Of a stretch of 64,000 nt of DNA, positions 18,972 to 32,657 are shown piece by piece. This DNA is from Devosia sp. YIM 151766 (GTDB taxonomy: Bacteria > Pseudomonadota > Alphaproteobacteria > Rhizobiales > Devosiaceae): the NCBI RefSeq assembly GCF_030285925.1, contig NZ_CP127251.1, positions 3,023,001 to 3,087,000 of the forward strand, in the 5' to 3' direction. Under the pieces are notes generated by a model, which had not been told where the DNA came from, ran no database searches, and saw only the letters and a list, made by a program, of their open reading frames with translations. The translations under genes were made by a program, and so were the position numbers. The number at the start of each line of letters is the position of its first letter. Position 1 is the stretch's first letter.

Positions 18972-19397
18972 TTAGCGGGGCCCGGCGCTTTCCATGGCGA
19001 TGGGCCGGGTATCTCCTGTTGCAACAATGGTGCGGTTGGCCTCGATCGAGGCATAGATCCACAGGATCGACATCGGCTCGGTCTGCGATGCGTTGATGAA
19101 GCGATGCGGCACGCCGGCCGGAACGAAGGTCGTATCCTGGACCGAGAGCGCATGCGCTTCGCCGTCAAGCTCTGCAATTGCATTGCCGGACAGCACCATC
19201 ACGCTTTCATCGCAATTGTGAAAATGCACCGGGATGGCGGCACCGGGCTCGAAGGCGGTGATGCCGCTGATAAAATTCTTCGCCCCGATCTTGGGCGTGA
19301 CCAGGGGGGTCGTTCTCGCGCCGCCGCCGCGATCGTGAAAGGGCAGCGTCTTGGGGGAGAGGATAATGCCCTTCCCGGTAAGGTCTTGTGCCGTCAT
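18972..19397 (-). CDS. cupin-domain protein
   Basis: A 141-residue single-domain cupin. The first cupin motif, AAIPVHFHNCDESVMVLSGN, gives two His and a Glu as metal ligands; the second motif, FVPAGVPHRFIN, gives the third His. A preceding stretch, VTPKIGAKNFISGITAFEPG, forms the first strands. Such small cupins bind metal and act as isomerases, lyases or sugar-binding enzymes. The start at 19397 is supported by GGAGCG 6 bases upstream; the open frame runs further up but reads into the next gene's antisense. It is the last gene of the minus-strand catabolic run, 40 bases after the Hyi-like gene. Confidence 0.82.
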   Translation of the reverse strand: MTAQDLTGKGIILSPKTLPFHDRGGGARTTPLVTPKIGAKNFISGITAFEPGAAIPVHFHNCDESVMVLSGNAIAELDGEAHALSVQDTTFVPAGVPHRFINASQTEPMSILWIYASIEANRTIVATGDTRPIAMESAGPR

Positions 19398-19437
19398 GAC
19401 AAGCGCTCCAGTTCGATGTTCAATGCTTACACGCGGC

Positions 19438-20232
19438 TTATGCGGCGATCTGCCGTTTCCACTCGGAAAGCCATCCAAGCCCGCGCTCGGTATCGCCAGC
19501 CGGGATATATTCGAAGCCGATCGCGCCTTTATAGCCGGCGGTATGAAGCGCCCCAAGGATCGCCGGGAAATCCAGCGTGCCGCTGCCTGGCTCATGGCGT
19601 CCCGGGCAATCGGCAATGTGAATATGCCCGAGCAGCGGCGCATATGTGCCGATGGCCGCAACGCCGTCCACGCCATCCACCGCCGCATGATAGGTATCGA
19701 CAAGGATCGAGACGGCGCCGGGCGCGAATTCTCCGGCAATGCCCGCAGCCTGCTCCAGCCTATGCAGATGATAGCCCGGCACCACTTTGCGGCTGATTGC
19801 CTCGATCAGCACCGAAGGGCCGCGCCCCTGGCAGCTCTCGACGGCAAAGGCGATATTGTCGCGATATGTCTGCTCGACCTCTGGCGTAGCCGCCGGCGGC
19901 ATGCCCGCCATCGGATGGATATAGGGACAGCCAATGGCCTCCGCGTAATCGAGGGCGTGCAGCAGGGCATCGCGGAAGGCGCGTTCCTGCCCGGGCAGCG
20001 CGGCAAGCCCCTTGCCGGGTCCGTCGGCCACTTCCGCGCCGACGGCAAGCTGGGAGAATTTCAGCCCGCTCTCCTCGAGCAGCGCCTTGACGGCCGGCGC
20101 CGCCAGCGCGAAGGGATGCGGATGCTCAACGGCATCGAAGCCGGCCCGCGCCGCCGCTGCGAACCGCTCTTCGAGACGGTATTCACCGAACATGTAGCCG
20201 ATATGGGCCGAGAGCCCGCTTCTTGCTGTCAT
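19438..20232 (-). CDS. hydroxypyruvate isomerase-like TIM-barrel protein (Hyi/OtnI family)
   Basis: A 264-residue sugar-phosphate isomerase/epimerase-type TIM barrel. The N-terminal GLSAHIGYMFGEYRLEERFA closely follows E. coli Hyi. Metal ligands are seen in VLIEAIS (Glu), VDTYHAAVDG (Asp and His), GHIHIADCPGRHEPGSG and IGFEYIPAGDTERGLGW (Glu). Hyi interconverts hydroxypyruvate and tartronate semialdehyde; OtnI isomerises 2-oxo-tetronates. Either reaction on a small hydroxy-keto acid would suit a polyol or sugar-acid pathway. It begins 5 bases after the YqhD-like gene, so the two are probably translated together. The exact substrate is not decidable here. Confidence 0.85.
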   Translation of the reverse strand: MTARSGLSAHIGYMFGEYRLEERFAAAARAGFDAVEHPHPFALAAPAVKALLEESGLKFSQLAVGAEVADGPGKGLAALPGQERAFRDALLHALDYAEAIGCPYIHPMAGMPPAATPEVEQTYRDNIAFAVESCQGRGPSVLIEAISRKVVPGYHLHRLEQAAGIAGEFAPGAVSILVDTYHAAVDGVDGVAAIGTYAPLLGHIHIADCPGRHEPGSGTLDFPAILGALHTAGYKGAIGFEYIPAGDTERGLGWLSEWKRQIAA

Positions 20233-20237
20233 GGCGC

Positions 20238-21416
20238 TTATGCCGCCTGCATCGGAGGCGTGGCCGGAATCGCGTTGAGGATAGCGCGCACCTCTTCGGC
20301 GCCGATATCGCGGCCCTCGCCAAGCGGCAGTTGCCCGGCCCGCGCGATGTGATCGACAATGGCATCCACGGCGATTTCGGTCGGGGCGATATCCGCCAGC
20401 GAGACCGGCGCCCCCATGGCCATGAAGAAAGCCTCGATGCGATCGATGGCGAACCGGGCGGCTTCCTCGTCGCTGCCCGCGCCGAAATCCCAGACCTCGC
20501 GCGCGCACTGGGCCAGCATGTCCTGCTTGGCCGCGATCCGGCTCCTGAAGACCGAGGCCATGACCAGCGACAGCGTCCGCGCATGGTCGAGGCCATGCAG
20601 TTCGGTGATCGCATGGCCGATCATATGGGTCGACCAATCCTGCCTGACGCCGGCCCCGATCAGCCCGTTAAGCGCTTGATTGGCGGCCCAGAGGACGTTT
20701 TCGCGCGCCTCGTCGGAATTGTCTTCGAGCAAGACCGGCCCCCATGCCAGCAGTACCTTGAGCAAGGTTTCGCTGAATCCCTGCTGGATCGGGGTATTGT
20801 CCTTTACCGTCGCATATTGCTCCAGCACATGGGTGAAGGCATCGACGACGCCATTGCTGAGTTGCCGCCGGTCGAGGCTCGCCATGGTGTCGCTGTCGAG
20901 AATGGCGAACCGGGGGCGGGCCTTCTCATAGCTGAACGGCAATTTGAGATGACGCGTCACGCTGGTGATCACCGAGACCGGATTGCTTTCCGAACCCGTG
21001 GCGGGAAGCGTGAGTACGACGCCGACCGGCAGGGGCGAGGCGGGATATTCGCCCTTTAGGAAAGCATCCCATGGGTCCGTTTCCTCGACGGCGGCGACAC
21101 TGGCGAGGAATTTGGCGGCGTCGACGACCGAGCCGCCCCCCACGGCCAGAATCAGTTCGGCTTTTTCCACCTTGGCGAGCGCGGCGGCCTTCTGGATCGT
21201 TTCGTAATGGGGATTGACCTCGATGCCGCCGAACTCGATCACGCTGCATGCGGCGAGCGCCCGCATCACCTGCTCATAGACGCCGTTGCGCTTGATGCTG
21301 CCGCCGCCATAGACGAGCATGACGCGGGTTCGGGCCGGGACCAGTTCCGAGAGCGACGCTATCGCGCCCTTGCCGAAGGCGATGCTGGTCGGGTTGGAGA
21401 GATTAAACGAGATCAT
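20238..21416 (-). CDS. iron-containing alcohol dehydrogenase, YqhD-like
   Basis: A 392-residue group III (iron-type) alcohol dehydrogenase, strikingly like E. coli YqhD from the start: FNLSNPTSIAFGKGAIASL. The NADP-binding region AVGGGSVVDAAKF and LTLPATGSESN are intact. Metal ligands are present in NGVVDAFTHVLEQY (Asp, His) and in WSTHMIGHAITELHGLDHA (His, His). YqhD-type enzymes reduce short aldehydes or oxidise small alcohols and polyols using NADP(H). Between an isomerase gene and DhaL, it probably oxidises or reduces the carbon skeleton handled by this cluster. It is separated from dhaL by 29 bases. Confidence 0.92.
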   Translation of the reverse strand: MISFNLSNPTSIAFGKGAIASLSELVPARTRVMLVYGGGSIKRNGVYEQVMRALAACSVIEFGGIEVNPHYETIQKAAALAKVEKAELILAVGGGSVVDAAKFLASVAAVEETDPWDAFLKGEYPASPLPVGVVLTLPATGSESNPVSVITSVTRHLKLPFSYEKARPRFAILDSDTMASLDRRQLSNGVVDAFTHVLEQYATVKDNTPIQQGFSETLLKVLLAWGPVLLEDNSDEARENVLWAANQALNGLIGAGVRQDWSTHMIGHAITELHGLDHARTLSLVMASVFRSRIAAKQDMLAQCAREVWDFGAGSDEEAARFAIDRIEAFFMAMGAPVSLADIAPTEIAVDAIVDHIARAGQLPLGEGRDIGAEEVRAILNAIPATPPMQAA

Positions 21417-21445
21417 GGCATAGTTCCTTGGCGATCCGATGCTGT

Positions 21446-22057
21446 TCAGGGCTGGCCGGCAATGGCGGAAACCATAAGATGGAGCGCCAGCATGCCCGGG
21501 TCGGTGAGGCCGACCGATTCCGCCCCATAGAGGCGGGCGCGGCCGAGTTTGGAGGGGCGGTCCCGGAAATCCGCGATCGCCTGTTCAAGGGCCGCGATCG
21601 CCGTCGATGCCGGCGGCTGACCGCCGGGGGCCGTGGCCAGCGCGCGCGCCAGATAGTCGAGCGCGTCGACGACGCTCTTGTCCCCCAGATTGGCCTGTCC
21701 CCGGCTCATGATCCCGTCGCGGACCAGAACCAGGAGCTCGCCGAACTCGACGAACGATAGCTCCGTTTTGCCGCTACTGGCTTTTGCCATGACCATCAAG
21801 GCGACGACCACCAGGGTTCCCAGGCTCGAACCGGTCGTGGCGCTGGCGGCTTTCGCCAACCGGCTGAAGCTCGATTGCAGGCTCTCCGACCCCGACAGAT
21901 CGACCTCGGCGAGGCCCTGGACGAGCCTGGCCAGCATGGTGCCGGTATCGCCGTCTCCCAGTTTCGCATCGGCCGCGTCCAGTTCGGCCGAAATCGCCGG
22001 CATACGGACATTGATCCTGGCGATCGCCGCTGCGATCGATTGGCTCGTGACGTTCAT
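21446..22057 (-). CDS. dhaL: dihydroxyacetone kinase L subunit (DhaL)
   Basis: A 203-residue, all-helical nucleotide-binding subunit. The ADP/Mg site motif DAADAKLGDGDTGTML carries the conserved Asp residues. ATTGSSLGTLV and GDKSVVDALDYLARAL follow as in the DhaL barrel. DhaL carries the nucleotide that phosphorylates the substrate bound covalently by DhaK. No DhaM (phosphotransferase component) gene lies nearby, so the enzyme either uses ATP directly or draws on a distant dhaM. The ATG at 22057 overlaps the dhaK stop as ATGA. A longer frame upstream runs inside dhaK and was rejected. Confidence 0.92.
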   Translation of the reverse strand: MNVTSQSIAAAIARINVRMPAISAELDAADAKLGDGDTGTMLARLVQGLAEVDLSGSESLQSSFSRLAKAASATTGSSLGTLVVVALMVMAKASSGKTELSFVEFGELLVLVRDGIMSRGQANLGDKSVVDALDYLARALATAPGGQPPASTAIAALEQAIADFRDRPSKLGRARLYGAESVGLTDPGMLALHLMVSAIAGQP

Positions 22058-23058
22058 TTCGCACCCACCGTCCAGAAGGGACAAGTGGCCGGCGCCGCGA
22101 GCTGGCGCTCGATCTCCTCGTCGAGAAAGCACAGTGAGATCGACAGGCCGGCCATTTCCATCGAGGTCACATATTCGCCCACCATCTGGCTGCTGATCTC
22201 GAACTTCTCCTGTGCGAGCCGCTCCGCCGCGCGCCGATACATGAGGAACAATTCTTCGAGCGGGGTCGAACCGAAGCCATTGACCAGAACGGCCACCCGC
22301 CCATTGCTATCGTCCGGCGCTTCGGCCAGCAGCCTTTCGATCATTTCGTCGACCAGCACATCGGCCGGCGGCCGGGCGGCGCGCCAGATACCGGGCTCGC
22401 CGTGAATGCCCATGCCCATTTCGATTTCATCGTCGCCGATCTGGAAGACCGGCGCCTTCGAACCGGGAATGATGCAGGGCGAGGTGGCCGCGCCGATCGT
22501 CTTGGTGCGCGCCACCGTGCGCTGGGCCAGTTCGGCGACCTCGTCGAGCGTGCCGCCGGCACTCGCGCAGGCGCCCGCCGCCTTATACGCGAAGACGATG
22601 CCCGCCACGCCGCGGCGCTTATGCGCTTCGGCCGGCGGGGCGCCCGCGATGTCGTCGGTGCCCAGAACGGTGCGGACCGAGATGCCATCGAGCTCGACCA
22701 TCTCCGAGGCCATGTCGAAATTCATCCTGTCGCCGCCGTAATTGCCATAGAGGCAAAGGACCCCTGCGCCTTCATTCGCCGTTTCGATCGCCTCCTGGCA
22801 TGATGCCATGTTCGGGCCTTCAAAGACATTGCCGACCGAGCAGGCATCGAGCAGTCCGTCCCCGACATAGCCGCAGAACAGCGGCAGATGTCCCGAACCG
22901 CCGCCGCTGACGATACCCACCTTGCCCGCGATATTGGGCTTGGACCGCCTGATGACCCGTCCGCCCGTACCGATACGCGCGAGGCTTTTATGCGCCATGA
23001 CCAGGCCGTCGAGAACCTCATCGACGTAGCGCTCGGGGTGGTTGATTAGCTTTTTCAT
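22054..23058 (-). CDS. dhaK: dihydroxyacetone kinase K subunit (DhaK)
   Basis: A 334-residue substrate-binding subunit starting MKKLINHPERYVDEVLDGLV, the classic DhaK N-terminus. SGGGSGHLPL holds one active-site His, and MGMGIHGEPGI holds the His that forms the covalent hemiaminal with the keto substrate. GNYGGDRMNFD and DDIAGAPPAEAHKRRGVAG match family loops. DhaK-like kinases act on dihydroxyacetone and, in some catabolic clusters, on erythrulose or other small keto-sugars. SGHLP replaces the more usual SGHEP. It lies between the aldolase and dhaL genes of the minus-strand cluster. The substrate may therefore be a C3 or C4 ketose, but this is inference. Confidence 0.93.
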   Translation of the reverse strand: MKKLINHPERYVDEVLDGLVMAHKSLARIGTGGRVIRRSKPNIAGKVGIVSGGGSGHLPLFCGYVGDGLLDACSVGNVFEGPNMASCQEAIETANEGAGVLCLYGNYGGDRMNFDMASEMVELDGISVRTVLGTDDIAGAPPAEAHKRRGVAGIVFAYKAAGACASAGGTLDEVAELAQRTVARTKTIGAATSPCIIPGSKAPVFQIGDDEIEMGMGIHGEPGIWRAARPPADVLVDEMIERLLAEAPDDSNGRVAVLVNGFGSTPLEELFLMYRRAAERLAQEKFEISSQMVGEYVTSMEMAGLSISLCFLDEEIERQLAAPATCPFWTVGAK

Positions 23059-23084
23059 CTATCGAGCCTGCTATCTGGGAGCAA

Positions 23085-23912
23085 TCACGCGTTCCGGGAA
23101 GCGGCGATGGCCTTGCGCAATCCCTCTACGCGCGCGGTCGCGGCCTCGACGAGGAAAGCGGAATCGGCATGGGTGGAGAGGAAGCGGACGCCGCGCTTGA
23201 TATAGCCTGCCTGCCGGTCGGGGTCGCGATCCCCGCCCATGCCCGCGAATATGCCATGGCGCGTGCATGCCGCGATCACGCGCTCCATCGCATCGTTGGC
23301 TGCCGCGCTGCCGAATTCGCCGGCCATGCCCATATCGATGAGCAGGTCGGAAAGTCCCACATGCAGGACGTCGATGCCCGGCACCGCCGCGATCTCCTCG
23401 ACATTTTCCAGGGCCTGGCGGGTTTCGATCATGCAGATCACCGCCGTCGTGCGGTCGAGCCGCGCGATAATGTCGGTCATGGGCAGCGGCGCATAGTTGA
23501 AATTGGGATAGACGCCGGCATAGGAGCGCCGCCCGAGCGGGGCGAATTTGCAGGCCTGGACGCAGCGCCGGGCCTCCTCGGCCGTATTCACGTCGGGATA
23601 GATAATGCCCGTCACCCCGCCATCCAGCAGAACCTGCACATTGGGATCGTCGACGCCGCGGACGCGGGCGATGGGCGCGATGCCGCATCCGAGCGCCGTC
23701 TGGGCGATATGCGCGATGGTCTCGGCCGAAAAAATGCCGTGCTGGCCGTCGATGAAGATGAAATCATGGCCTGTCAGCTTGGCCAGGCGGGCGATTTCGC
23801 CCGACCGCGCCAGCCGCACGACCATGCCCATGGCTGGTTCGTCGGCCCGCATCCGCTCAAGGACGGGATTGGTGTCGGCGGCTTCGGGAAGGATGTCTGT
23901 GGCAAGGCTCAT
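23085..23912 (-). CDS. HpcH/HpaI-family aldolase
   Basis: A 275-residue class II pyruvate-aldolase-like TIM barrel. The N-terminal LARLTKLTGHDF-type strand (AKLTGHDFIFIDGQHG) has the catalytic His in GQHG. The metal-binding Glu lies in VICMIETRQALENVEEIA and the Asp in HVGLSDLLIDMG, both family-typical. HpcH/HpaI enzymes cleave 2-keto-3-deoxy or 4-hydroxy-2-keto acids into pyruvate and an aldehyde. AGGAGATTTCGA precedes the ATG. It lies 26 bases upstream of dhaK in transcription and follows the transporter ATPase genes. Its aldehyde product could feed the aldehyde dehydrogenase at the cluster head or the YqhD-like enzyme. Confidence 0.9.
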   Translation of the reverse strand: MSLATDILPEAADTNPVLERMRADEPAMGMVVRLARSGEIARLAKLTGHDFIFIDGQHGIFSAETIAHIAQTALGCGIAPIARVRGVDDPNVQVLLDGGVTGIIYPDVNTAEEARRCVQACKFAPLGRRSYAGVYPNFNYAPLPMTDIIARLDRTTAVICMIETRQALENVEEIAAVPGIDVLHVGLSDLLIDMGMAGEFGSAAANDAMERVIAACTRHGIFAGMGGDRDPDRQAGYIKRGVRFLSTHADSAFLVEAATARVEGLRKAIAASRNA

Positions 23913-23942: not shown

Positions 23943-24953
23943 TCAGGCGGCTTGCGTCGCCGTCCCTTGAAGCGAAAGCTCTTCCGCGCGATGGCATCGC
24001 ACGGTGCGGCCCGGCGATAGGGTGCGTTCATCGGGGACCTCCTGTTTGCAGCGCTCGATGGCGAACGGGCATCTGGGATGGAAGGCGCAGCCGCTGGGCG
24101 GGTTGGCCGGGTCGGCGATCTCGCCGCGCAGCACCGTGCGCGCACCGCGCTTTTCCGGATCGGCCACCGGGGCCGAGGACAGCAGCGCCGCCGTATAGGG
24201 ATGGAGCGGACGCAAATAGAGGTCTTCGGTCGGACCCGTTTCCACGATGCGTCCGACATACATGACGGCGACGCGGTCGCTCATATGCTTGACCACGCCC
24301 AAATCATGGGCGACGAACAGGTAAGACAGGCCCAGTTCCTGTTGCAATTCGAGCAGCAGATTGACCACTTGGGCCTGGACCGACACGTCGAGCGCCGACA
24401 CCGGCTCGTCGGCGACGATCAGCTTGGGATTAAGCGCCAGCGCCCGCGCGATGCCGATGCGCTGGCGTTGGCCGCCGCTGAAAGCATGGGGAAAGCGGGA
24501 AACCGAGCTTTTGGGCATCCGCACCAGGTCCAGCAATTCGAGAACCCGCTTGCGCCGCTCTTCGGGCGTTCCGGACCTGTTGATCAGCATGGGTTCGTCG
24601 ATGATGTCGCCCACGGTCATGCGCGCATTGAGCGATGAATTGGGGTCCTGGAAAATCATCTGGATCTGTCGCCGGATCGGCTTTAGGCCATTGCGGTCAA
24701 GCCGCGCGAGGTCGACCTGGCCGGCATCGGCATCGAACAACATCTCCCCCGCCGAAGGCGTGTGCGCCCGCAGGACGCAGCGCGACACAGTGGTCTTGCC
24801 GCAGCCGCTTTCGCCAACCAGCGACAAGGTTTCCCCCTTGCGGATGGCAAAGCTGACATTGTCGACGGCCTGGACCTGGCCGACTTCGCGCTGGAGCAGC
24901 CCGCGACGGATGGGAAACCTCTTGGAGAGGTTTTTGACCTCGAGCAAATTCAT
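23943..24953 (-). CDS. ABC transporter ATPase, DppF/OppF type
   Basis: A 336-residue ATPase beginning MNLLEVKNLSKRFPIRRGLL. Walker A is GESGCGKT, the signature is FSGGQRQR, and Walker B is LIVADEPVSALD, followed by HDLGVVKHMSDRVAVMYVG. The oligopeptide-type C-terminal cysteine motif, CAFHPRCPFAIERC, is present. It partners the ATPase encoded just upstream, whose stop overlaps its ATG by four bases. Together they drive the permeases at 25959-28108. The long frame extending upstream of 24953 reads out of phase with the neighbour and was not used. Confidence 0.93.
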   Translation of the reverse strand: MNLLEVKNLSKRFPIRRGLLQREVGQVQAVDNVSFAIRKGETLSLVGESGCGKTTVSRCVLRAHTPSAGEMLFDADAGQVDLARLDRNGLKPIRRQIQMIFQDPNSSLNARMTVGDIIDEPMLINRSGTPEERRKRVLELLDLVRMPKSSVSRFPHAFSGGQRQRIGIARALALNPKLIVADEPVSALDVSVQAQVVNLLLELQQELGLSYLFVAHDLGVVKHMSDRVAVMYVGRIVETGPTEDLYLRPLHPYTAALLSSAPVADPEKRGARTVLRGEIADPANPPSGCAFHPRCPFAIERCKQEVPDERTLSPGRTVRCHRAEELSLQGTATQAA

Positions 24954-25954
24954 AGTGGAATACCCGTACGAAAACAGCTCACCCTGCTGCCCATGGGCAG
25001 ATGGACCTCCTTCGGCACCTCGACGTCGCAAAGGCCGGATTCGGCGATCGGGCAGCGCGGATGGAACAGACAGCCTTGGGGGCGCATATAGGGATGGGGA
25101 ACCGAGCCCTCGATCGTTGGCAGTTTCGACTTGGGCGCGGCCCGGATATCGGGAATTGAACGCAGCAGCAGCCGTGTATAGGGATGCTGGGGCGACTGGA
25201 ATATCGTGCGCACCGGCGCATGTTCGACCACGCGCCCCAGATACATCACCGCCACGTCGTCGCACATTTCCGCAACCACCCCCATATCGTGGGTGATCAG
25301 GATCAGCGCCAGGTTGTTTTCCTGCTGGATGCGCTGCAACAGGTCGAGAATCTGCGCTTGCGTCGTCACGTCCAGCGCCGTGGTGGGCTCGTCGGCGATG
25401 AGCACCCGCGGATCCCCGGCCAGCGCCATGGCGATCACCACGCGCTGGCGCAGGCCGCCGCTGAGCTGGAAGGAATAGCTGTCGATCCGGCTGCTCGGCT
25501 GGGGAATGCCCACCTCGTTCATGTAATGGATCGCCATTTCCCGCGCCTCGCGCTTGGTCACGTTGCGATGCTTGAGGATCACCTCGATGATCTGGCTGCC
25601 GATCGTATATAAGGGGCTGAGCGAGGTCATCGGCTCCTGGAAGATCAGCGCGATGCGGCCACCGCGGATCGAACGGATCTGCGACCCCTCCGCCGGCAGG
25701 CCGACGAGATCCACGGCCGCCGCGTCCACGCCGTCATCGAGCCAGATCTGGCCGTTATCGATGCTCGCGGATTTGTCGAGGATGCGCAGGATCGAGCGGG
25801 CGGTAACGCTTTTGCCGCAGCCGCTTTCTCCGACGATGCCGAGTGTCTTGCCGGCATAGACTTCCAGATTGACGCCATCGAGCGCCTTGATGACACCTTC
25901 GTCCTGATGAAATGAGGTCTCGAGATCGGTGATCCGCAAAATCGGCGTCTGCAT
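24950..25954 (-). CDS. ABC transporter ATPase, DppD/OppD type
   Basis: A 334-residue ATPase starting MQTPILRITDLETSFHQDEG. Walker A is GESGCGKS, the signature is LSGGLRQR, and Walker B is [12 protein letters not shown], with HDMGVVAEMCDDVAVMYLG after it. The C-terminal CLFHPRCPIAESGLC motif is the oligopeptide/carbohydrate-transporter Cys cluster. TATGGAGG upstream supports the start at 25954. It begins 4 bases after the DppC-type gene and overlaps the DppF-type gene as ATGA, so all are co-translated. Confidence 0.93.
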   Translation of the reverse strand: MQTPILRITDLETSFHQDEGVIKALDGVNLEVYAGKTLGIVGESGCGKSVTARSILRILDKSASIDNGQIWLDDGVDAAAVDLVGLPAEGSQIRSIRGGRIALIFQEPMTSLSPLYTIGSQIIEVILKHRNVTKREAREMAIHYMNEVGIPQPSSRIDSYSFQLSGGLRQRVVIAMALAGDPRVLIADEPTTALDVTTQAQILDLLQRIQQENNLALILITHDMGVVAEMCDDVAVMYLGRVVEHAPVRTIFQSPQHPYTRLLLRSIPDIRAAPKSKLPTIEGSVPHPYMRPQGCLFHPRCPIAESGLCDVEVPKEVHLPMGSRVSCFRTGIPL

Positions 25955-25958: not shown

Positions 25959-27119
25959 TCAGCCTCCATAGGGGTCAGCGGCGTCGCGCAAGCCGTCGCC
26001 AAAGAAATTGAAGGCGAGGATCACGACGATCACCGGGATGGCGGCACTGAGCAGCCAGGGTGCCAGCACCAGCGACTGGACGTTCTGCACGTCCTGCAGG
26101 AGGATGCCCCAACTGATGGCCGGCGGACGCAGGCCCAGCCCGAGAAAGCTCAGAGCCGTCTCGCTGATGATCATGGCCGGGAGCGCCAGCGTTACCGAGG
26201 CGATGAGATGGCTGACAAAGGATGGCAGGAGATGGCGGAAAATGATCCGCGTCCGGCTGGCCCCGGCCAATTCGGCCGCCAGCACGAAGTCCTCGCCGCG
26301 TAGCGACATGAACCGTCCACGCACCACCCGCGCCAGATCCGTCCATCCGATCAGCGAGATGATCACGGTGATGGCGAAATAGACCTGCATCGTGCTCCAG
26401 GTCGGCGGCAACGCCGCCGCAAGCCCCATCCACAGCGGTATGGTCGGTATGGAATGCAGGATTTCGATAGTGCGCTGGATGAAATTGTCGATGATCCCGC
26501 CGAACAGCCCCGATATGCCGCCGAGAACGACGCCGAGCACGAGACTGACGGCGACACCGGCCAATCCGATGAACAGCGATATGCGCGTCGCATGGGCCAG
26601 CCGCGACAGCAGGTCACGCCCGAGCTGGTCGGTCCCCAGAAGATAGATGCCGTCGGCGCTGTTGGCGGCGGCCGGCTCGGCCAGCCCGATCAGGTGCCGA
26701 TTGGTCTCGAAAAGCCCGAACAGGTGATAGCTATAGCCCTCGGCAAACAGGCTCACGGGAATTTTCCGATCCGGGTCGGGCTCGTAGACGATACGGAAAG
26801 TGCGCAAGTCGCGCTTGCCCGACAGGCCATAGACATGGGGATTGAAGCCGCTTTCATCGAATAAATGGATCGCCTGCGGCGGGATGAAGCTCCGGGCGGA
26901 GGCCGTCGCGTGCGGATTGTTGATCGAGAGGAAGTCGGCAAAGATGGCGATCGTATAAAAGACGATGAGGACGATGCCTCCCGCCAATGCGAGCTTGTGC
27001 TTGCGAAAGCGCCACCAGGTGAGCTGGAGCTGCCCGGCTTGCGCGACGCGCGCCTCGATATCGCTCTGATCCGTCGAGATTATGGTGGACTGGGGTGCAC
27101 CGACAGCGATCTGGCTCAT
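25959..27119 (-). CDS. ABC transporter permease, DppC type with large periplasmic insert
   Basis: A 386-residue inner-membrane permease. After the first membrane segment (KLALAGGIVLIVFYTIAIFA) comes an unusually long external stretch of roughly 120 residues, including YGLSGKRDLRTFRIVYEPDP and FAEGYSYHLFGLFETNRHLI. Then follows the normal LGTDQLGRDLLSRLAHATRI and five membrane segments, ending in the ALSFLGLGLRPPAISWGILL motif. DppC proteins with such inserts are found in transporters for sugars and other non-peptide solutes, whereas the permease at 9035-9973 lacks one. The ATG at 27119 overlaps the DppB stop as ATGA. Confidence 0.92.
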   Translation of the reverse strand: MSQIAVGAPQSTIISTDQSDIEARVAQAGQLQLTWWRFRKHKLALAGGIVLIVFYTIAIFADFLSINNPHATASARSFIPPQAIHLFDESGFNPHVYGLSGKRDLRTFRIVYEPDPDRKIPVSLFAEGYSYHLFGLFETNRHLIGLAEPAAANSADGIYLLGTDQLGRDLLSRLAHATRISLFIGLAGVAVSLVLGVVLGGISGLFGGIIDNFIQRTIEILHSIPTIPLWMGLAAALPPTWSTMQVYFAITVIISLIGWTDLARVVRGRFMSLRGEDFVLAAELAGASRTRIIFRHLLPSFVSHLIASVTLALPAMIISETALSFLGLGLRPPAISWGILLQDVQNVQSLVLAPWLLSAAIPVIVVILAFNFFGDGLRDAADPYGG

Positions 27120-28108
27120 TGTGTCACCTGGAAACGAATGCGTGGATCGAGCCACATCAACAAAAGGTCCGAAATGAAGGTGCCGATGACGGTCAGGACG
27201 CCGAGCAGAAGCACGATGGCGCCCGCCAGATACATGTCCTGGGCCACCAGTGCCCTGAGCAGGACCGGGCCCACAGTGGGCAGGCCGAGCACCAGCGCCA
27301 CGATGATGCTGCCCGAGATCAGCTGAGGAAAGACATAGGCCATCGAACTCACGAAGGGATTGAGCGAGGCCCGGACCGGATATTTGACCAGCACGCGCAT
27401 CGCCGTCAGCCCCTTGGCGCGGGCGGTGACGACATAGGGCTGACGCAATTCGTCCAGCAGGTTGGCGCGCATCAGGCGGATGAGCTGGGCCGTGCCCGCC
27501 ATGGCCAGGATGAAGGCCGGCAGCACGAGATGCGCCAGCAGGTCGAGGACCTTGGCCAGGCTCCACGGCGCCTGTTCGTATTCGGGCGAGAACAGCCCGC
27601 CGACGCTGGTGCCGAAATAGCGGAAGCCGATATAGAGCATGATCAGCGCCAGCAGGAAATTGGGCACGGCCAGCCCGATAAATCCAAGGAAGGTGAAGAT
27701 GTAGTCGCCGACCGAATATTTCCGCACGGCGGAATAGATGCCGACCGGAATGGCGATCAGCCAGGTGATGAGGAGCGCCGACACCGAAACGGCGAGCGTC
27801 AGCCACAGGCGGTCCGACAGGATGTCCCAGACCGGGCGCCGCCATTCCATCGAATAGCCGAAATTGCCCACGAGGATTTTGCCGATCCATTTTACGTATT
27901 GGATGAAGATCGGATCATCGAGCCCGAATTCCCGCCGCAGATTCTCGGCCTCGGCCGCCGATACGGCGCTGCCGCTGGCCGCCAGCTGCGCGATATAGGC
28001 ATCGGCGAAATCTCCGGGCGGCAGCTGGATGATCACGAAGGTGATGATGGTGATAAAAAAGATCGTGACGGCTGCCATCAGCAATCTATGGGCAATGTAG
28101 CGCAGCAT
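27116..28108 (-). CDS. ABC transporter permease, DppB type
   Basis: A 330-residue inner-membrane permease starting MLRYIAHRLLMAAVTIFFIT. The usual DppB landmarks are ITFVIIQLPPGDFADAYIAQ, an REFGLDDPIFIQYVKWIGKI region, then VGNFGYSMEWRRPVWDI, and later an EAA-like loop around QPYVVTARAKGLTAMRVLVK. The C-terminal LLMWLDPRIRF matches the family. GAAAGG lies 9 bases before the ATG. It is separated from the binding-protein gene by 62 bases containing a hairpin. Confidence 0.92.
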   Translation of the reverse strand: MLRYIAHRLLMAAVTIFFITIITFVIIQLPPGDFADAYIAQLAASGSAVSAAEAENLRREFGLDDPIFIQYVKWIGKILVGNFGYSMEWRRPVWDILSDRLWLTLAVSVSALLITWLIAIPVGIYSAVRKYSVGDYIFTFLGFIGLAVPNFLLALIMLYIGFRYFGTSVGGLFSPEYEQAPWSLAKVLDLLAHLVLPAFILAMAGTAQLIRLMRANLLDELRQPYVVTARAKGLTAMRVLVKYPVRASLNPFVSSMAYVFPQLISGSIIVALVLGLPTVGPVLLRALVAQDMYLAGAIVLLLGVLTVIGTFISDLLLMWLDPRIRFQVTQ

Positions 28109-28153: not shown

Positions 28154-28170
28154 CCCCGAAGTTCAAGAGA

Positions 28171-30231
28171 TCAGCGGAAGAAGAATTGCTGCGGATAGGC
28201 CGCCGACGGCGTGCGGCACTGATTGGCCACGCAGCTGCGCTCGGGCGTATTGCCCAGCTTGTTGCTGACGACACGCGTTCCGAAACTGCCCGGCGATACG
28301 CCCACGGCACCGATGGACCATTGCTGATCGACAACGATCTTCCAGATTTCCTGGGCCAGCCGGTTGCGCTCTTCCTCGCCCACTGATGGCGCCTGACGGA
28401 ACAGATCAAAAACCTCGATCATGTAAGGGTCTTCGGGCGCCACGCCCTGTTCGCCGCCCGAGACGTACCAGCGGGCGAATTCAGGCCCGTTATTGGACTG
28501 GCTGGGATCGATGGGCACGACATAATGCGGAACCAGGAACAGTTTCTCGGATCCCGAATTGCTGAACGGGAAGATCTGCAATTCATTATTGAGCAGGCGC
28601 GTAAAGGCCAGGGACCTCTCGGTTTCCCGCACGTCGAGCGCAATACCGATATCCTTCCACTGCTGCGCCACCATTTCGAGCTGCTGCGGATAGGGCTGCA
28701 GGGACTGCACGGCGGCGGCCTGCAGGACCAGGCGCTGGCCATTATCGGTGCGCACGCGATATCCTTCGTCATCGCGCTGGTCGAGACCGATCGCATCGAG
28801 CATGCGATTGGCTTCGTCGGGCTGATAGGTCGACCATTTCGTGCGCCATTCCGGTCCGGGGTTTTCCGGCGATTCGTCGGCGACCACCGGCGAGCCGGAT
28901 GTGCCCAAGCCGATCCAGAACGTTTCGTTGAGCTGCTCGCGATCGATGCCCAGCGACAGCGCCCGGCGGAAATCGACATTGCGCAGCCACTTGCCGATTT
29001 CCTCGTCCGCCGTGTAGCTCATATTCATGTGCAGAACGAGATCGGCGCCATAGGTCGCCAGGTCGATATGGACGGTGTAGTCGCCACGCTCCTGGTTCTC
29101 GAGCAGGACCGGCAGCTTGGCCAATTGCAGGTGCCGCTGCTGATAATCATATTCGCCGGCAATGGCTCGCAGATTGACCACTTCGAGGTCTTCGGCGAGA
29201 CCGAAATTCACCCGGTCGATATAGGGCAATTGATTACCCTCGGTGTCGACCATCCAGTAATAGGGATTGCGCTCCAGAACCCAGTTCGACGTGTTGATGG
29301 GCTGCACGGTCTTCCACGGGCCCAGCACCGGCAATTCGGTGTTGAGGCGCCAATCCTTGAGGAAGTGGAAATACTGCACCCAGTTCTCGTATCCCGCCGC
29401 CTGGGCGGTTTGTTCGACCTCCTCGAGCGGCGTGTAATCGGGATGGAACTGCTTGAGATAGGCTGCCGGGGCATAGGGGCCGAGACTGCGGCCGCTATTC
29501 TGGCCCCAGGTCTGGCCGCCCACATTACCCTGCGCCGCGAACTGCTCGACCAGAAGGAAATTGGGGCCGTCGAATTCGAAGCGGACGGTATAATCGTCGA
29601 CCTTGACCACCCGGCCTTCCGACCCGGCGACCTGCAATTCCTGGATGCGGGGTCCGCCGATATCGCTGTTCTTGTAGACGTCTTCATACCAGAAGACGAA
29701 ATCGTCGGCGGTAAAGGGATCGCCGTTCGACCATTTCATGCCTTCGCGCAGATGCAGCGTCGTCTGGAACCCATCCTCACTGATTTCCCAGTCGCGCGCC
29801 ACGCTGGGCTTGAGCGTGGATCCCGAATAATCCCAGGTGAGGACACGGTCCGATGCCATGACGCGGTTACCCGCCTCGCTGTCGCCCGGGCCGGTAAAGG
29901 CCGTGCGCCAGGTGCCGCCATATTGACCGATTTCCTCAAGCGTCTGCAGCACCAGCGGCTGGCTTGGGAGACGCTCGGCCACCGGGGGAAGCTCGCCCGC
30001 CGCCACCAGATCCGCAAGCTCGGGCGCCTCGCCAAAACCGTTGGAGAACGCGATTTCCTCGGCGTACACCTCGGCGCCCTCGAGCTGGCCGATCAGTGAC
30101 GACCCTTCAAGGGCCCCCTGCGCGAAGACGGCCTGGCCGCTCATGGCCAGCATGGCGGCTAGAGCCACTCCCGAAAGCCTGTGCATGGATGCCCGGCGCA
30201 GGGCACCGTAGCCTTGCTTTATTACGATCAT
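28171..30231 (-). CDS. ABC transporter substrate-binding protein, Dpp-family, probable carbohydrate/polyol type
   Basis: A 686-residue binding protein with a signal peptide whose core is LSGVALAAMLAMSGQAVFAQ. The mature part has the SBP_bac_5 features GLEISEDG-like WEISEDGFQTTLHLREGMKW, NGDPFTADDFVFWYEDVYK and FRRALSLGIDREQLNETFW. The stretch NPYYWMVDTEGNQLPYIDRV is characteristic of the large binding proteins that in Thermotoga and relatives serve oligosaccharides rather than peptides (recalled family knowledge). At 686 residues it is about 100 longer than the protein at 5372-7111. GGGAGG lies about 9 bases before the ATG at 30231; an in-frame ATG 15 codons in is the alternative. It follows the aldehyde dehydrogenase gene by 31 bases. 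Confidence 0.9.
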   Translation of the reverse strand: MIVIKQGYGALRRASMHRLSGVALAAMLAMSGQAVFAQGALEGSSLIGQLEGAEVYAEEIAFSNGFGEAPELADLVAAGELPPVAERLPSQPLVLQTLEEIGQYGGTWRTAFTGPGDSEAGNRVMASDRVLTWDYSGSTLKPSVARDWEISEDGFQTTLHLREGMKWSNGDPFTADDFVFWYEDVYKNSDIGGPRIQELQVAGSEGRVVKVDDYTVRFEFDGPNFLLVEQFAAQGNVGGQTWGQNSGRSLGPYAPAAYLKQFHPDYTPLEEVEQTAQAAGYENWVQYFHFLKDWRLNTELPVLGPWKTVQPINTSNWVLERNPYYWMVDTEGNQLPYIDRVNFGLAEDLEVVNLRAIAGEYDYQQRHLQLAKLPVLLENQERGDYTVHIDLATYGADLVLHMNMSYTADEEIGKWLRNVDFRRALSLGIDREQLNETFWIGLGTSGSPVVADESPENPGPEWRTKWSTYQPDEANRMLDAIGLDQRDDEGYRVRTDNGQRLVLQAAAVQSLQPYPQQLEMVAQQWKDIGIALDVRETERSLAFTRLLNNELQIFPFSNSGSEKLFLVPHYVVPIDPSQSNNGPEFARWYVSGGEQGVAPEDPYMIEVFDLFRQAPSVGEEERNRLAQEIWKIVVDQQWSIGAVGVSPGSFGTRVVSNKLGNTPERSCVANQCRTPSAAYPQQFFFR

Positions 30232-30262
30232 CGAACTTGTCCTCCCTCGATCGTTTCGAAAA

Positions 30263-31630
30263 CTATTCGCCCCCGACCCACACGGTCTTGACGTTGACGA
30301 ATTCCCTGAGGCCGTAGCTACCCAGCTCGCGGCCATAGCCGGATTTCTTGATGCCGCCGAACGGCAGATGCGGGTGCGACGCAACAATGGCGTTGATAAA
30401 GACCGCTCCGGCCTCGATGCGCGGAACCACGGCCCGGGCCCGTTCCGTGTCGGCGGTCCAGATGGCCGCGCCCAATCCGTATTCGGAGCGGTTGGCCAGG
30501 GCGATCGCGTGCTCGCGATCGTCGGCGCGAATGATCGCGGCAACCGGACCGAACAATTCCTCGTCGAATGCCGGCATGCCCGGGGCGACCTGGTCGAGCA
30601 CGGTCGGCGCATAGAAGCTGCCCGCGCCGTCGATGGGCCGTCCGCCGAGCCGGGCGACCGCGCCGCGCTCGACGCTTTTTTGCACCTGGGCGTGCAATTC
30701 CGCCCGCAGGTTATCCCGCGCCATCGGCCCGATGCTGACGCCGTCATCCATCGGATCGCCAACCTTGAGGCGCTCGACCTCGGCGCAGAACGCATCGGCA
30801 AAGGCATCGGCAACCGAGGCTTCGACGATGAACCGCTTGGCGTTGACGCAGCTCTGGCCGTTATTGATGAAGCGCGATCGCACGCCCGCCGCCGCCGCCT
30901 TGGCGATATCGGCATCGGCAAGCACGATGAACGGATCCGATCCGCCCAGTTCCAGCACCTGCTTTTTCAGCGCCGCGCCGGCCTGCGCCGCGACCACCGC
31001 GCCGACAGCGGTGGAGCCCGTCAGCGTTATCGCGGCGATACGGTCGTCGGCGATGATCGCACCCACGGGATCGGGACCGATCATCAGCACCCCGGCAAGC
31101 CCCTCGGGCACCTGCGCCTCGCGCAGGACATCGGCGATCAGCAGCGCACATTCGGGAACATTGCTGGCATGTTTGAGCACGACGCCATTGCCCGCCATCA
31201 GCGCCGGGGCAAAGAAGCGGAAAAACTGCCACAGGGGATAGTTCCACGGCATGATGGCAAAGACCACGCCGAGCGGATCGAAGGTTGCCGCGCTATAGGC
31301 GGCCTCGGTGGCGATCGGTTCAGGCGCCAGAAAGTCCGGGCCCTTCTCCGCATAGAACGTGCAGCACCAGGCGCATTTCTCGACCTCGGCAAGGGCTTCC
31401 GCATAGGGTTTGCCCATTTCTTCGGTGACGACCCGCGCCAGGACATCCGCCCGCGATCTCAGCGCCGCGGCGATTGCCCTCAACAGCGCGGACCGATCGG
31501 CAAGCGCTGTTTCCCGCCAGGCAAGCTGGGCATTTCGCGCCGCGTCCAGCGCCGCATCAACGTCTTCCTGCGTGTGTTCGGGGAATCGATTCCGTAGCGC
31601 CCCGGTCGCAGGATTGATCGATAACAACAT
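30263..31630 (-). CDS. NAD(P)-dependent succinate-semialdehyde-type aldehyde dehydrogenase
   Basis: A 455-residue aldehyde dehydrogenase, close to the short E. coli Sad/YneI subgroup: MLLSINPATGALRNRFPEH at the start and AIMPWNYPLWQFFRFFAPAL at the cofactor site. The catalytic Cys lies in NNGQSCVNAKR, the general base Glu in LELGGSDPF, and the C-terminal FGGIKKSGYGRELG is standard. The reaction is oxidation of an aldehyde such as succinate semialdehyde to the acid. Within this cluster it may instead oxidise the aldehyde released by the HpcH/HpaI aldolase. It is the first catabolic gene after the predicted promoter at 31660-31689. Confidence 0.92.
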   Translation of the reverse strand: MLLSINPATGALRNRFPEHTQEDVDAALDAARNAQLAWRETALADRSALLRAIAAALRSRADVLARVVTEEMGKPYAEALAEVEKCAWCCTFYAEKGPDFLAPEPIATEAAYSAATFDPLGVVFAIMPWNYPLWQFFRFFAPALMAGNGVVLKHASNVPECALLIADVLREAQVPEGLAGVLMIGPDPVGAIIADDRIAAITLTGSTAVGAVVAAQAGAALKKQVLELGGSDPFIVLADADIAKAAAAGVRSRFINNGQSCVNAKRFIVEASVADAFADAFCAEVERLKVGDPMDDGVSIGPMARDNLRAELHAQVQKSVERGAVARLGGRPIDGAGSFYAPTVLDQVAPGMPAFDEELFGPVAAIIRADDREHAIALANRSEYGLGAAIWTADTERARAVVPRIEAGAVFINAIVASHPHLPFGGIKKSGYGRELGSYGLREFVNVKTVWVGGE

Positions 31631-31648
31631 TCAGCGGTTCCATATCTT

Positions 31649-31675
31649 GAACGAACATCAGTGTATGGAACGAAC
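31649..31675. promoter_or_regulatory. paired GAACGAAC repeats overlapping the cluster promoter (candidate GntR operators)
   Basis: GAACGAAC occurs at 31649-31656 and 31668-31675, a start-to-start distance of 19 bases. GTTCCATA (31637-31644) and TATGGAAC (31664-31671) also form an inverted pair. One copy falls between the -35 and -10 boxes and the other at the predicted start of transcription. The adjacent GntR gene makes these plausible operators, but no binding is shown. Confidence 0.45.
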
Positions 31676-31689
31676 GTAAAAAATGTCAA
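31660..31689 (-). promoter_or_regulatory. sigma70-type promoter of the minus-strand catabolic cluster
   Basis: Read on the minus strand, TTGACA (31684-31689) and TACACT (31660-31665) are 18 bases apart, near consensus. Transcription would start near 31653, giving a leader of about 23 bases to the aldehyde dehydrogenase start at 31630. This fits a single long transcript through the transporter, aldolase, kinase and isomerase genes. Confidence 0.6.
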
Positions 31690-31880
31690 CGGACAAAATT
31701 CGACCTGCCCTCGTCTGGTCCCGAACGCCGCACGCCGACCTGCGCGCGGCCGGGCGCGCGCCGGCGCCGGTCACGAAATCATGCGTGTATTTGGTGGATA
31801 GATTGGTGCCTTGACGATCCTGGGCGAAGCCATGGCGGCGCGCCTGCTATCGCCCTCAGGCAATGCCCGCTATCGGGGCT

Positions 31881-32657
31881 TCAGGCCGCGGAGCCGCCGT
31901 CTTCCATGCGCCCGGCGGCCCGTTCGAATCCCTGGGAAATGGCGTCGCGCATGGCCGCGCGGGCGGCGGCGGGATCGCGGTCGCGAATGGCTTCGGCGAT
32001 GCGCCGGTGCACATTCACCGTCTCGGCCAGGGCGGCGGAATTGTTGACCGGCGAGGAAATGGTGAAGGCCGCCGTCAGCGCCATTTCCACCAGGGCGCTG
32101 ATCGAGGCCATGAACGGATTGCCCGAGGCCTCGGCCACCGCCCGGTGGAATTCGAGATCGTAGCGGGCGAAATCGGCCGGGGTTTTGGCGCCGGCCATCT
32201 TGTTCACCCACTCGCTCAGAATGGCGGCCTGGTCCGGCTCCGCCCGTTCCGCCGCCAAGGCCGCGGCCTCGATCTCGATGCCGATCCGGACCTCGGCGAG
32301 GCTGCGCAGGAAGGCGATGTCCGGGCCCAGCTCGAAATGCCAGGCCAGCACGTCGGCATCGAAGAGATTCCAGCGCCCGCGCGGCAATACCCTGGTGCCG
32401 ATCCGCGCCCGTGCCTCGATCAATCCCTTGGCGGCCAGGGTCTTCAGCGCCTCGCGCAGCACCGTGCGCGACACGCCGAACCGGTCCAGCAATTCGCTGT
32501 CGGGCGGCAATATGCTGCCCTGCGGATACTGTCCCGAAACGATGGCGAAACCCATTTCCCACAACACGTCGGAATGCAGGTTCCGCGCCGGATTGCGGCC
32601 GGAAAGCGTGGCGATGAGGTCGCCGGAATTGCGCGCGCGTCCGCTGGACCTGTCCAT
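31881..32657 (-). CDS. GntR-family (FadR/FCD) transcriptional regulator
   Basis: A 258-residue regulator. The winged helix is visible as LHSDVLWEMGFAIVSGQYPQ, then LPPDSELLDRFGVSRTVLRE and ALKTLAAKGLIEARARIGT. The FCD effector domain has EVRIGIEIEAAALAAERAE, the metal-site pattern FARYDLEFHRAVAEASGN, and VNVHRRIAEAIRDRDPAAAR. FCD regulators usually repress catabolic genes and are released by an acid or sugar-acid. It lies directly upstream of the catabolic cluster on the same strand, 250 bases from the aldehyde dehydrogenase start, with candidate operators between them. It is therefore the likely local regulator. Confidence 0.92.
   Translation of the reverse strand: MDRSSGRARNSGDLIATLSGRNPARNLHSDVLWEMGFAIVSGQYPQGSILPPDSELLDRFGVSRTVLREALKTLAAKGLIEARARIGTRVLPRGRWNLFDADVLAWHFELGPDIAFLRSLAEVRIGIEIEAAALAAERAEPDQAAILSEWVNKMAGAKTPADFARYDLEFHRAVAEASGNPFMASISALVEMALTAAFTISSPVNNSAALAETVNVHRRIAEAIRDRDPAAARAAMRDAISQGFERAAGRMEDGGSAA

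What the first reader, a model, noticed from the sequence alone, without database searches (positions are those of the whole stretch)
18972..32657. A complete-looking uptake-and-catabolism cluster of unknown substrate
Thirteen minus-strand genes follow a GntR regulator and one consensus promoter: aldehyde dehydrogenase, a five-part Dpp-type transporter, HpcH/HpaI aldolase, DhaK, DhaL, YqhD-like dehydrogenase, Hyi-like isomerase and a cupin. The binding protein has the long form and the GNQLPYID stretch seen in sugar-type members, and its DppC partner carries a large outer insert. Together they suggest a path in which a polyol, ketose or sugar derivative is imported, oxidised or isomerised, phosphorylated by DhaKL, and cleaved to pyruvate plus an aldehyde. 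I know of no described pathway with exactly this set; the order of steps is inference.
Basis: partly seen in the sequence, partly recalled or inferred. Interest (0 to 1): 0.72.

Follow-up and report, generated by a model that had tools for sequence, protein, structure and literature searches.

The report
Composite sugar-acid uptake and catabolism operon
A Devosia-like bacterium carries a twelve-gene operon that looks like a new combination of known parts for importing an unknown sugar acid and turning it into central-metabolism compounds through a triose kinase; the parts recur elsewhere, but I did not find this combination again.

Summary
An IclR gene lies 161 bases beyond, then a tripartite carboxylate transporter with a short-chain dehydrogenase (14102-17930, +). 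No listed curated model reaches its cut-off with any operon protein.

Outside this genome the set splits into separately conserved modules: a five-gene Dpp-type importer (beside a putative uronate-dehydrogenase-like gene in two of eight loci); Hyi-like isomerase, Sad-like aldehyde dehydrogenase and cupin, usually with a hydroxy-acid dehydrogenase, sometimes TctCBA or OtnK; and DhaKL, at times with a YqhD-like enzyme, often near TctCBA and pyruvate-aldolase-type genes. No other locus examined held the whole set; aldolase and cupin were not found in the 11 other same-genus and 9 other same-family genomes sampled.

Best reading: an acquired locus for a sugar acid or hydroxy-carboxylate rather than a polyol or neutral ketose; an aldolase or decarboxylation releases a free triose, which DhaKL phosphorylates, probably with ATP. 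Substrate and step order are inference. Testable, but a new combination of known parts.

The parts
31881..32657 (-). FadR-type GntR regulator (GntR + FCD domains)
   Evidence: nearest NCBIfam model NanR 99.9 of 260 bits, not reached
31637..31689 (-). promoter-like site TTGACA-18-TACACT (31689-31660) overlapped by perfect inverted repeat GTTCCATA (31637-31644) / TATGGAAC (31664-31671), candidate operator
   Evidence: 8-bp repeat in 1.4% of shuffles; function not tested
30263..31630 (-). aldehyde dehydrogenase of the Sad type; the catalytic Cys and Glu positions (recalled) appear kept
   Evidence: best solved match Sad 8qmq, 476 bits; listed NCBIfam cut-offs not reached; relatives 48-63% identical lie at or near the cupin elsewhere
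28171..30231 (-). family-5 solute-binding protein, long form, 686 aa
   Evidence: closest database protein 88% identical
27116..28108 (-). DppB-type permease
25959..27119 (-). DppC-type permease with about 108 residues between its first two hydrophobic stretches
24950..25954 (-). DppD-type ATPase
23943..24953 (-). DppF-type ATPase
23085..23912 (-). HpcH/HpaI-family aldolase; candidate active-site residues (positions recalled) appear kept
   Evidence: alignments; closest protein 81% identical
22054..23058 (-). DhaK: triose-binding kinase subunit; His56, Asp109, His218 of E. coli DhaK (positions recalled) kept, GGGSGHEP is GGGSGHLP
21446..22057 (-). DhaL: nucleotide-binding kinase subunit, motif GDGDTG
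   Evidence: no DhaM match in the genome
20238..21416 (-). iron-type alcohol dehydrogenase, YqhD-like
19438..20232 (-). xylose-isomerase-like TIM barrel, about equally close to hydroxypyruvate isomerase and 2-oxo-tetronate isomerase
   Evidence: 206.8 and 204.2 bits against cut-offs of 353.45 and 325
18972..19397 (-). single-domain cupin with His-x-His...Glu and a later His
   Evidence: relatives of >=50% identity lie next to the Sad-like aldehyde dehydrogenase in 15 of 19 loci
17950..18810 (-). IclR-type regulator beyond the operon end, possibly part of the system
   Evidence: several DhaKL relatives have an IclR gene near them
14102..15073 (+).
15146..15610 (+). TctB-type small membrane protein
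   Evidence: by position between tctC and tctA; 27% match to the gene between tctC and tctA in L187
15626..17119 (+). TctA permease
   Evidence: 42-47% identical to TctA in L024, L126, L127-L130, L149, L185 and L187; 31% in L146
17133..17930 (+). short-chain dehydrogenase directly after TctA, where L185 and L127-L128 have an Ldh_2 gene
   Evidence: 48% identical to an SDR near an aldolase and TctA in L149

Best explanation
An acquired locus for one sugar acid or hydroxy-carboxylate, or a small family of them. The Dpp-type ABC system imports it, and the neighbouring TctCBA system probably imports it or a smaller acid. The acid is oxidised and rearranged inside the cell as an unphosphorylated 2-oxo or 3-oxo acid (Sad-like aldehyde dehydrogenase, Hyi-like isomerase, cupin, SDR). 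The HpcH/HpaI aldolase, or a decarboxylation, releases pyruvate or CO2 plus a free triose (dihydroxyacetone or glyceraldehyde). DhaKL phosphorylates the triose, probably with ATP, giving dihydroxyacetone phosphate or its isomer; the YqhD-like enzyme reduces or oxidises the side aldehyde. GntR and/or IclR control it. Shown: gene classes, order, operon-like spacing and conserved partnerships of the modules. Inferred: substrate class, order of steps, every reaction.
For: (1) DhaK clade: of the 80 best loci of 134 relatives, a DHDPS-family (pyruvate-aldolase-type) gene lies in the locus in 12 of 17 with DhaK >=59% identical, 6 of 17 at 50-59% (five of these six at only 24-26% identity), 2 of 46 below 50%; TctA in 8, 6 and 2 (Fisher 1.7e-7 and 2e-4 for top against bottom; loci not independent by descent). 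In Devosia neptuniae the DHDPS gene directly precedes dhaK, where the window has the HpcH/HpaI gene. (2) Cupin >=50% identical: a Sad-like aldehyde dehydrogenase within 150 bases in 15 of 19 loci, against 0 of 18 for cupins <45%. Among 19 such loci: Ldh_2 in 12, TctC in 8, Hyi in 7 (five of them picked through Hyi), TctA in 6, OtnK in 3. (3) The full order TctCBA, Ldh_2, Hyi, ALDH, cupin is seen in L185. (4) The Dpp set (SBP 52-55%, DppC 67-73%) recurs in 7 of 8 SBP loci; two loci have a putative uronate-dehydrogenase-like gene within 200 bases of the SBP gene, and a third has one in the locus with a galactonate-dehydratase-like gene. (5) No DhaM match in the genome.
Against: No listed equivalog cut-off is reached, so each reaction is a family-level guess. 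The aldolase is not a usual partner of this DhaK clade: HpcH-like genes lie in 2 of 80 DhaK loci, at 29-31%, and in none of the 17 closest. None of the 19 cupin loci holds dhaK, the YqhD gene or the aldolase at E<=1e-10, so the modules may serve different substrates here. Four of 8 SBP loci gave no match to my sugar-acid queries and a fifth (L215) only a 28% enolase-family match. Other DhaKL relatives sit with CoA-transferases or amidohydrolases. There is no dehydratase or Ldh_2 in the operon. The Dpp and Tct systems would be two importers for one pathway.
Confidence: 0.5

Rival explanations
1. One reading: a polyol, ketose or sugar derivative is imported, oxidised or isomerised, phosphorylated by DhaKL and then cleaved to pyruvate plus an aldehyde.
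For: DhaKL, a YqhD-like dehydrogenase and an SBP with sugar-type solved relatives lie in one operon. DhaK-family kinases also act on tetruloses (recalled).
Against: HpcH/HpaI aldolases act on unphosphorylated 2-oxo acids (recalled). No dehydratase is present to make a 2-oxo-3-deoxy acid from a ketose phosphate. Partners of the modules are often carboxylate genes.
Confidence: 0.1
2. Aldarate-type route: the aldolase cleaves a 5-keto-4-deoxy-glucarate-like acid to pyruvate plus tartronate semialdehyde, as GarL does; the Hyi-like enzyme interconverts that with hydroxypyruvate, and ALDH or YqhD disposes of it.
For: The aldolase matches HpaI, GarL and 2-keto-3-deoxy-L-rhamnonate aldolase models (110, 94 and 80 bits). 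A Hyi-like enzyme is present. Some relatives of the Dpp system lie near putative uronate-dehydrogenase-like or galactonate-dehydratase-like genes. SwHKA, a relative at 88 bits, accepts hydroxypyruvate (PMC10099721, passages read).
Against: GarL cut-off is 406.75 bits and is not reached. The genome has no tartronate semialdehyde reductase over cut-off (best 50.3 of 340.75 bits). DhaKL is left without a role.
Confidence: 0.2
3. A chance composite: two or three independent catabolic modules placed under one promoter, each with its own substrate, so that there is no single pathway.
For: The modules are separate in the other loci examined. Aldolase and cupin were not found in the 11 other same-genus and 9 other same-family genomes sampled.
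Against: Tight spacing through all twelve genes. Metagenome proteins 88% (SBP), 81% (aldolase) and 74% (DhaL) identical hint that a relative keeps several of them, though on short contigs that I could not link. For Roseomonas sp. OT10 the source names and one shared contig length (5,329,498) link an SBP of 68% and an aldolase of 59%; their distance is unknown, and no DhaL of it was in the 120 listed.
Confidence: 0.17
4. Pectin or oligogalacturonate importer with downstream uronate catabolism.
For: Second-best solved SBP relative is SPH1118, a pectin-binding protein (315 bits). Two relatives of the system adjoin a putative uronate-dehydrogenase-like gene. Three SPH1118 ligand-site arginines (57, 294, 466) are kept.
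Against: Of 15 SPH1118 residues named as ligand contacts in PMC9314435 (passages) that I mapped on the alignment (12 by script, Glu505, Phe592 and Trp594 by eye), 3 are kept and 12 differ or fall in a gap; Asn324 was not mapped. Two of the three that the paper stresses, Arg438 and Trp594, are lost. No pectinase or uronate isomerase gene in the operon.
Confidence: 0.06

Closest known systems
L-threonate / D-erythronate pathway (LtnD, OtnI, OtnK, OtnC to dihydroxyacetone phosphate)
   Same: Hyi/OtnI-like isomerase; end point at the triose-phosphate level; the ALDH-cupin genes lie near OtnK in 3 of 19 loci (L176, L178, L183), the L183 kinase being over the OtnK cut-off (519 of 350 bits)
   Different: No OtnK or OtnC in the cluster; DhaKL instead; extra aldolase, YqhD-like enzyme, ALDH and cupin; the isomerase is below the OtnI cut-off
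TctCBA, Ldh_2, Hyi-like, Sad-like ALDH, cupin operons of Alphaproteobacteria (L185, L128-L130; no described function found)
   Same: TctA 45-47%, Hyi 48-53%, ALDH 60-63%, cupin 60-64% identical
   Different: In the window Ldh_2 is missing (an SDR follows TctA), ALDH lies 10.9 kb from the cupin, and Dpp, aldolase, DhaKL and YqhD genes lie between
DhaKL loci with TctCBA, IclR and a DHDPS-family gene in Devosia, Azospirillum and Shinella
   Same: DhaK 65-68%, DhaL 44-49%; TctCBA and IclR close by
   Different: HpcH/HpaI aldolase in place of the DHDPS-family gene; operon shared with a Dpp transporter and the Hyi/cupin genes
SPH1118 pectin-binding protein and structure 5ipw
   Same: Full-length relatives of the SBP (315 and 350 bits)
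   Different: Most mapped SPH1118 ligand residues differ

Membership tests
L-threonate/D-erythronate pathway (OtnI-OtnK-OtnC) | 2-oxo-tetronate isomerase OtnI | tested here: not met
   204.2 bits, cut-off 325 (NF043033)
L-threonate/D-erythronate pathway (OtnI-OtnK-OtnC) | OtnK (DUF1537) kinase and OtnC decarboxylase in the cluster | tested here: not met
   no such domain among the 14 proteins scanned; two PF07005 matches lie elsewhere in the genome
Hydroxypyruvate isomerase Hyi | TIGR03234 equivalog | tested here: not met
   206.8 bits, cut-off 353.45
Galactarate/glucarate pathway (GarL, GarR) | GarL aldolase | tested here: not met
   93.7 bits, cut-off 406.75
Galactarate/glucarate pathway (GarL, GarR) | tartronate semialdehyde reductase in the genome | tested here: not met
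   best 50.3 bits, cut-off 340.75; the control rings over the cut-off in 1 of 14 genomes
Dihydroxyacetone kinase DhaKLM (PTS type) | DhaM phosphotransfer subunit | tested here: not met
   no match in the genome; control rings in 3 of 14 genomes
Dihydroxyacetone kinase, two-subunit DhaK + DhaL | Dak1 and Dak2 domains | tested here: met
   372.6 and 87.7 bits
Dihydroxyacetone kinase, two-subunit DhaK + DhaL | covalent-binding His and catalytic Asp/His of DhaK | tested here: met
   aligned; positions recalled from E. coli DhaK
Dihydroxyacetone kinase, two-subunit DhaK + DhaL | curated equivalogs TIGR02363 (DhaK) and TIGR02365 (DhaL) | tested here: not met
   346.9 of 406.25 and 73.9 of 138.3 bits
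Dihydroxyacetone kinase, two-subunit DhaK + DhaL | activity on dihydroxyacetone | not testable with these tools
   needs enzyme assay
YqhD | PRK15138 equivalog | tested here: not met
   390.9 bits, cut-off 645; same family, not the same equivalog
Succinate-semialdehyde dehydrogenase | PRK13968 / PRK09406 equivalogs | tested here: not met
   534.9 of 855 and 545.3 of 730 bits
SPH1118-type pectin SBP | Arg57, Arg438 and Trp594 of the ligand site | tested here: not met
   Arg kept; Leu; Asn (alignment, mapping and by eye; residues from PMC9314435)
Tripartite tricarboxylate transporter (adjacent genes) | TctA and TctC domains in one operon with a small TctB | tested here: met
   530.7 and 148.5 bits; TctB by position and a 27% match

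The most novel reading that the evidence does not exclude
A kinase-last version of four-carbon acid-sugar catabolism: an acid such as threonate or erythronate is oxidised, the Hyi/OtnI-like isomerase makes the 3-oxo acid, the cupin (or spontaneous loss of CO2) decarboxylates it to free dihydroxyacetone, and DhaKL makes dihydroxyacetone phosphate. This would replace the OtnK-OtnC pair, and it shares the DhaKL step with a pyruvate aldolase that makes the same triose from a six-carbon acid brought in by the Dpp system. Against it: in the 19 cupin loci examined, OtnK (3) and Hyi (7) never occur together, and the aldehyde dehydrogenase has no place in this route.
Probability: 0.15. Interest if true: 0.6.

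Novelty: new variant of a known kind. Interest (0 to 1): 0.4.

Why it matters
The Sad-like ALDH and cupin pair is a conserved partnership (15 of 19 loci, in Alphaproteobacteria, a betaproteobacterium and an actinobacterium) for which my paper searches showed no assigned function. The window ties that pair to a triose kinase and an aldolase in one operon, which points to short oxo acids and makes it testable with one strain. If right, it gives a function to one kind of unassigned carboxylate-transporter operon of soil bacteria and a new use for DhaKL.

Tried and rejected
Pectin route: put last on ligand-site residues. PTS-type DhaKLM: rejected, no DhaM match. A whole-cluster relative: not found. 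I looked in 80 DhaK loci, 397 genomes of the order for the aldolase and 397 for the cupin, 385 genomes of the class for DhaL and 385 for the SBP, 199 genomes of the order for DhaK, and plasmid records (of their hits I fetched 27 stretches, some without annotation). Base composition tells nothing: GC 0.636 in the cluster, 0.639 in the rest. The DhaK motif GHLP is found in relatives of many contexts. The second DhaK of the genome (L016) lies with an ALDH, a TIM barrel, an AMP-binding enzyme and a thiolase, and was not pursued. Genome-level co-occurrence of aldolase (12) and cupin (23) in 396 genomes: 7 share both, Fisher 6e-7; without one small-genome family 3 shared of 8 and 11, 9e-4. In the three that I looked at (G445, G591, G678) the two genes are about 14 kb apart or on different contigs, so this is weak.
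Full report
What is there. On the minus strand, reading down from 32657, lie a FadR-type GntR gene (31881-32657), a 250-base gap with one sigma-70-like site, then twelve genes spaced by -4 to 62 bases: Sad-like aldehyde dehydrogenase, family-5 binding protein, DppB, DppC, DppD, DppF, HpcH/HpaI aldolase, DhaK, DhaL, YqhD-like iron alcohol dehydrogenase, Hyi-like TIM barrel and a one-domain cupin. After 161 bases follows an IclR gene (17950-18810). On the other strand directly beyond it lie TctC, TctB, TctA and a short-chain dehydrogenase (14102-17930). The promoter TTGACA-18-TACACT is the best-scoring site of 12800-32760, but sites there are not more frequent than in shuffles. A perfect 8-base inverted repeat overlaps its -10 region and the presumed start.

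Where it comes from. The window lies in a closed 3.29-Mb genome. The DhaK locus of same-genus genome G389 lies on a 10,106-base contig with the same length and the same matches as a contig titled Devosia indica (L113 and L028), so I infer a Devosia-like genus. None of the 11 other same-genus and 9 other same-family genomes in the sample has the aldolase at E<=1e-45 or the cupin at E<=1e-20, so the locus is accessory. Its base composition does not stand out.

Module 1, the Dpp importer. In 385 genomes of the class, four besides the own one hold the SBP at E<=1e-150, and the 23 genomes of one of their families add four at E<=1e-200 (the tally of 5 there includes G231, and a second copy in G781 was not fetched). 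I fetched eight loci (L204-L207, L213-L216). Seven of eight keep the five-gene set, with DppB 65-68%, DppC 67-73%, DppD 58-61% and DppF 66-68%; the SBP is 52-55% identical in all eight. In L206 no DppBCDF set of that identity was seen. A putative uronate-dehydrogenase-like gene (so called by me from sequence resemblance; its nearest NCBIfam model is the glucose-6-phosphate dehydrogenase Azf at 147 of 400 bits) lies divergently within 200 bases of the SBP gene in L213 and L216, and in L204 about 3.5 kb away with a galactonate-dehydratase-like gene (211 of 311 bits) and a GntR gene; of the other five loci only L215 shows a distant enolase-family match (28%). L214 and L216 also have a gene whose start reads like an isocitrate/isopropylmalate-type dehydrogenase (not scanned). 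The nearest solved proteins are 5ipw and the pectin-binding SPH1118. Of 15 SPH1118 ligand contacts mapped (12, 3 by eye), Arg57, Arg294 and Arg466 are kept and 12 are not; three kept arginines would fit an acidic ligand, but the pocket is not that of SPH1118.

Module 2, Hyi-ALDH-cupin. The cupin is specific: 40 plasmid records in all and 24 of 397 order genomes, the own one included. I examined 19 loci with a cupin of at least 50% identity: all five chromosomal ones outside the window, nine plasmid records out of the 40, and five records found through the Hyi gene (five of the 25 listed). A Sad-like aldehyde dehydrogenase lies within 150 bases in 15 of the 19; L178 has one 2.9 kb away; L127, L156 and L180 have none. 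The 18 chromosomal cupins below 45% have none within 1.5 kb (Fisher 5e-7). In the 19 loci, tblastn finds Ldh_2 in 12, TctC in 8, Hyi in 7 (five of them chosen through Hyi), TctA in 6, OtnK in 3, and dhaK, YqhD or aldolase in none. L185 has the clean order TctC, TctB, TctA, Ldh_2, Hyi, ALDH, cupin. L183 carries a kinase well over the OtnK cut-off next to the ALDH.

Module 3, DhaKL. Of 134 relatives found in genome contigs the best 80 were kept. A DHDPS-family gene lies in the locus in 12 of 17 with DhaK >=59%, 6 of 17 at 50-59% (five of these at 24-26% identity) and 2 of 46 below; TctA in 8, 6 and 2 (Fisher). Loci average 17.6 to 18.8 kb, so the groups are comparable in length, but the relatives are not independent by descent. 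A YqhD-like gene 60-62% identical lies directly after dhaL in L024, after an open frame that looks like a fused DhaK-DhaL in L126 (DhaK part 40%), and about 9 kb from dhaKL in L125. In other relatives DhaKL sits with CoA-transferases and an acetolactate-synthase-like gene, or with amidohydrolases, so the DHDPS link is common, not universal. HpcH-like genes lie in only 2 of the 80 loci.

The aldolase. Of 397 order genomes, 13 including the own one have a relative at E<=1e-45, the best 58% (L146, with TcuB over its equivalog cut-off, a FAD enzyme, an Ldh_2-type gene and a TctA of 31%) and one of 42% with an SDR of 48% and TctA of 47% (L149, also with Ldh_2, a thiamine-diphosphate enzyme, an enolase-family dehydratase-like gene and RraA). 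In 5.8 billion proteins the closest is 81% on a short metagenome contig; for the SBP 88% and for DhaL 74%. Roseomonas sp. OT10 is named for an SBP of 68% and an aldolase of 59%, both with the contig length 5,329,498; its neighbourhoods could not be read.

How it probably works. Each module's company is, in part of its loci, carboxylate or sugar-acid metabolism, so I favour an acid as substrate. In the DhaK relatives a different pyruvate-aldolase-type gene often lies near dhaK, in Devosia neptuniae directly before it, where the window has its aldolase; I read this as replacement of one aldolase type by another, an inference. The lack of a DhaM match makes ATP the likely donor. Where ALDH, Hyi and cupin act is open: as in the known threonate route, read in passages of PMC12540250, the isomerase may act on a 2-oxo acid; or it may act on hydroxypyruvate or tartronate semialdehyde, although the genome has no tartronate semialdehyde reductase over cut-off.

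What is known and what is new. None of the listed curated models reaches its cut-off with any of the operon's proteins (for the aldehyde dehydrogenase and the two ATPases only the best 25 models of 43, 185 and 186 were listed), so the cluster is a member of no assigned pathway by that test. Paper searches for such a gene set (listings and starts of abstracts, with passages read of PMC12540250, PMC9314435 and PMC10099721) gave none; most subscription papers are not in that library. I file it as a new combination of known modules. The surprise for a specialist is moderate; the main gain is that a conserved but apparently unassigned ALDH-cupin partnership and a DhaKL clade are here tied together and can be tested in one organism.

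Noticed in passing
L152-L155, L175-L177, L179, L181-L183, L128-L131: Sad-like aldehyde dehydrogenase and a small cupin are adjacent in these 15 of the 19 loci examined, across Alphaproteobacteria, Burkholderia and Rhodococcus, with no function that I could find.
   Followed up: partly
window 5351-10926: A second Dpp/Opp-type ABC transporter (SBP, fused ATPase, two permeases) lies on the plus strand upstream, followed by a Cyclase-family gene at 11122-11913 and another IclR gene (12097-12867, minus).
   Followed up: partly
window 12978-14021: An NHL-repeat protein directly precedes tctC; it may be a lactonase-like partner of the transporter.
   Followed up: no
L021, L022, L031, L033: Verrucomicrobial DhaK genes of the same clade (65-68%) come with a DHDPS-family gene and a multi-spanning membrane protein that, from its sequence start, may be a carboxylate transporter (not scanned), so the aldolase-kinase link crosses phyla.
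   Followed up: partly
L119, L121, L125, L034: DhaKL next to an acetolactate-synthase-like thiamine-diphosphate enzyme and CoA-transferases in Shinella, Azospirillum, Microvirga and, judged from sequence starts only, Pelagibacterium: another use of DhaKL that I could not place.
   Followed up: no
L036 14985-20951 (Devosia geojensis): DppC/D/F relatives (51-58%) next to a UPF0261 gene and a PEP-hydrolase-like gene, close to the DhaKL/TctCBA cluster.
   Followed up: partly
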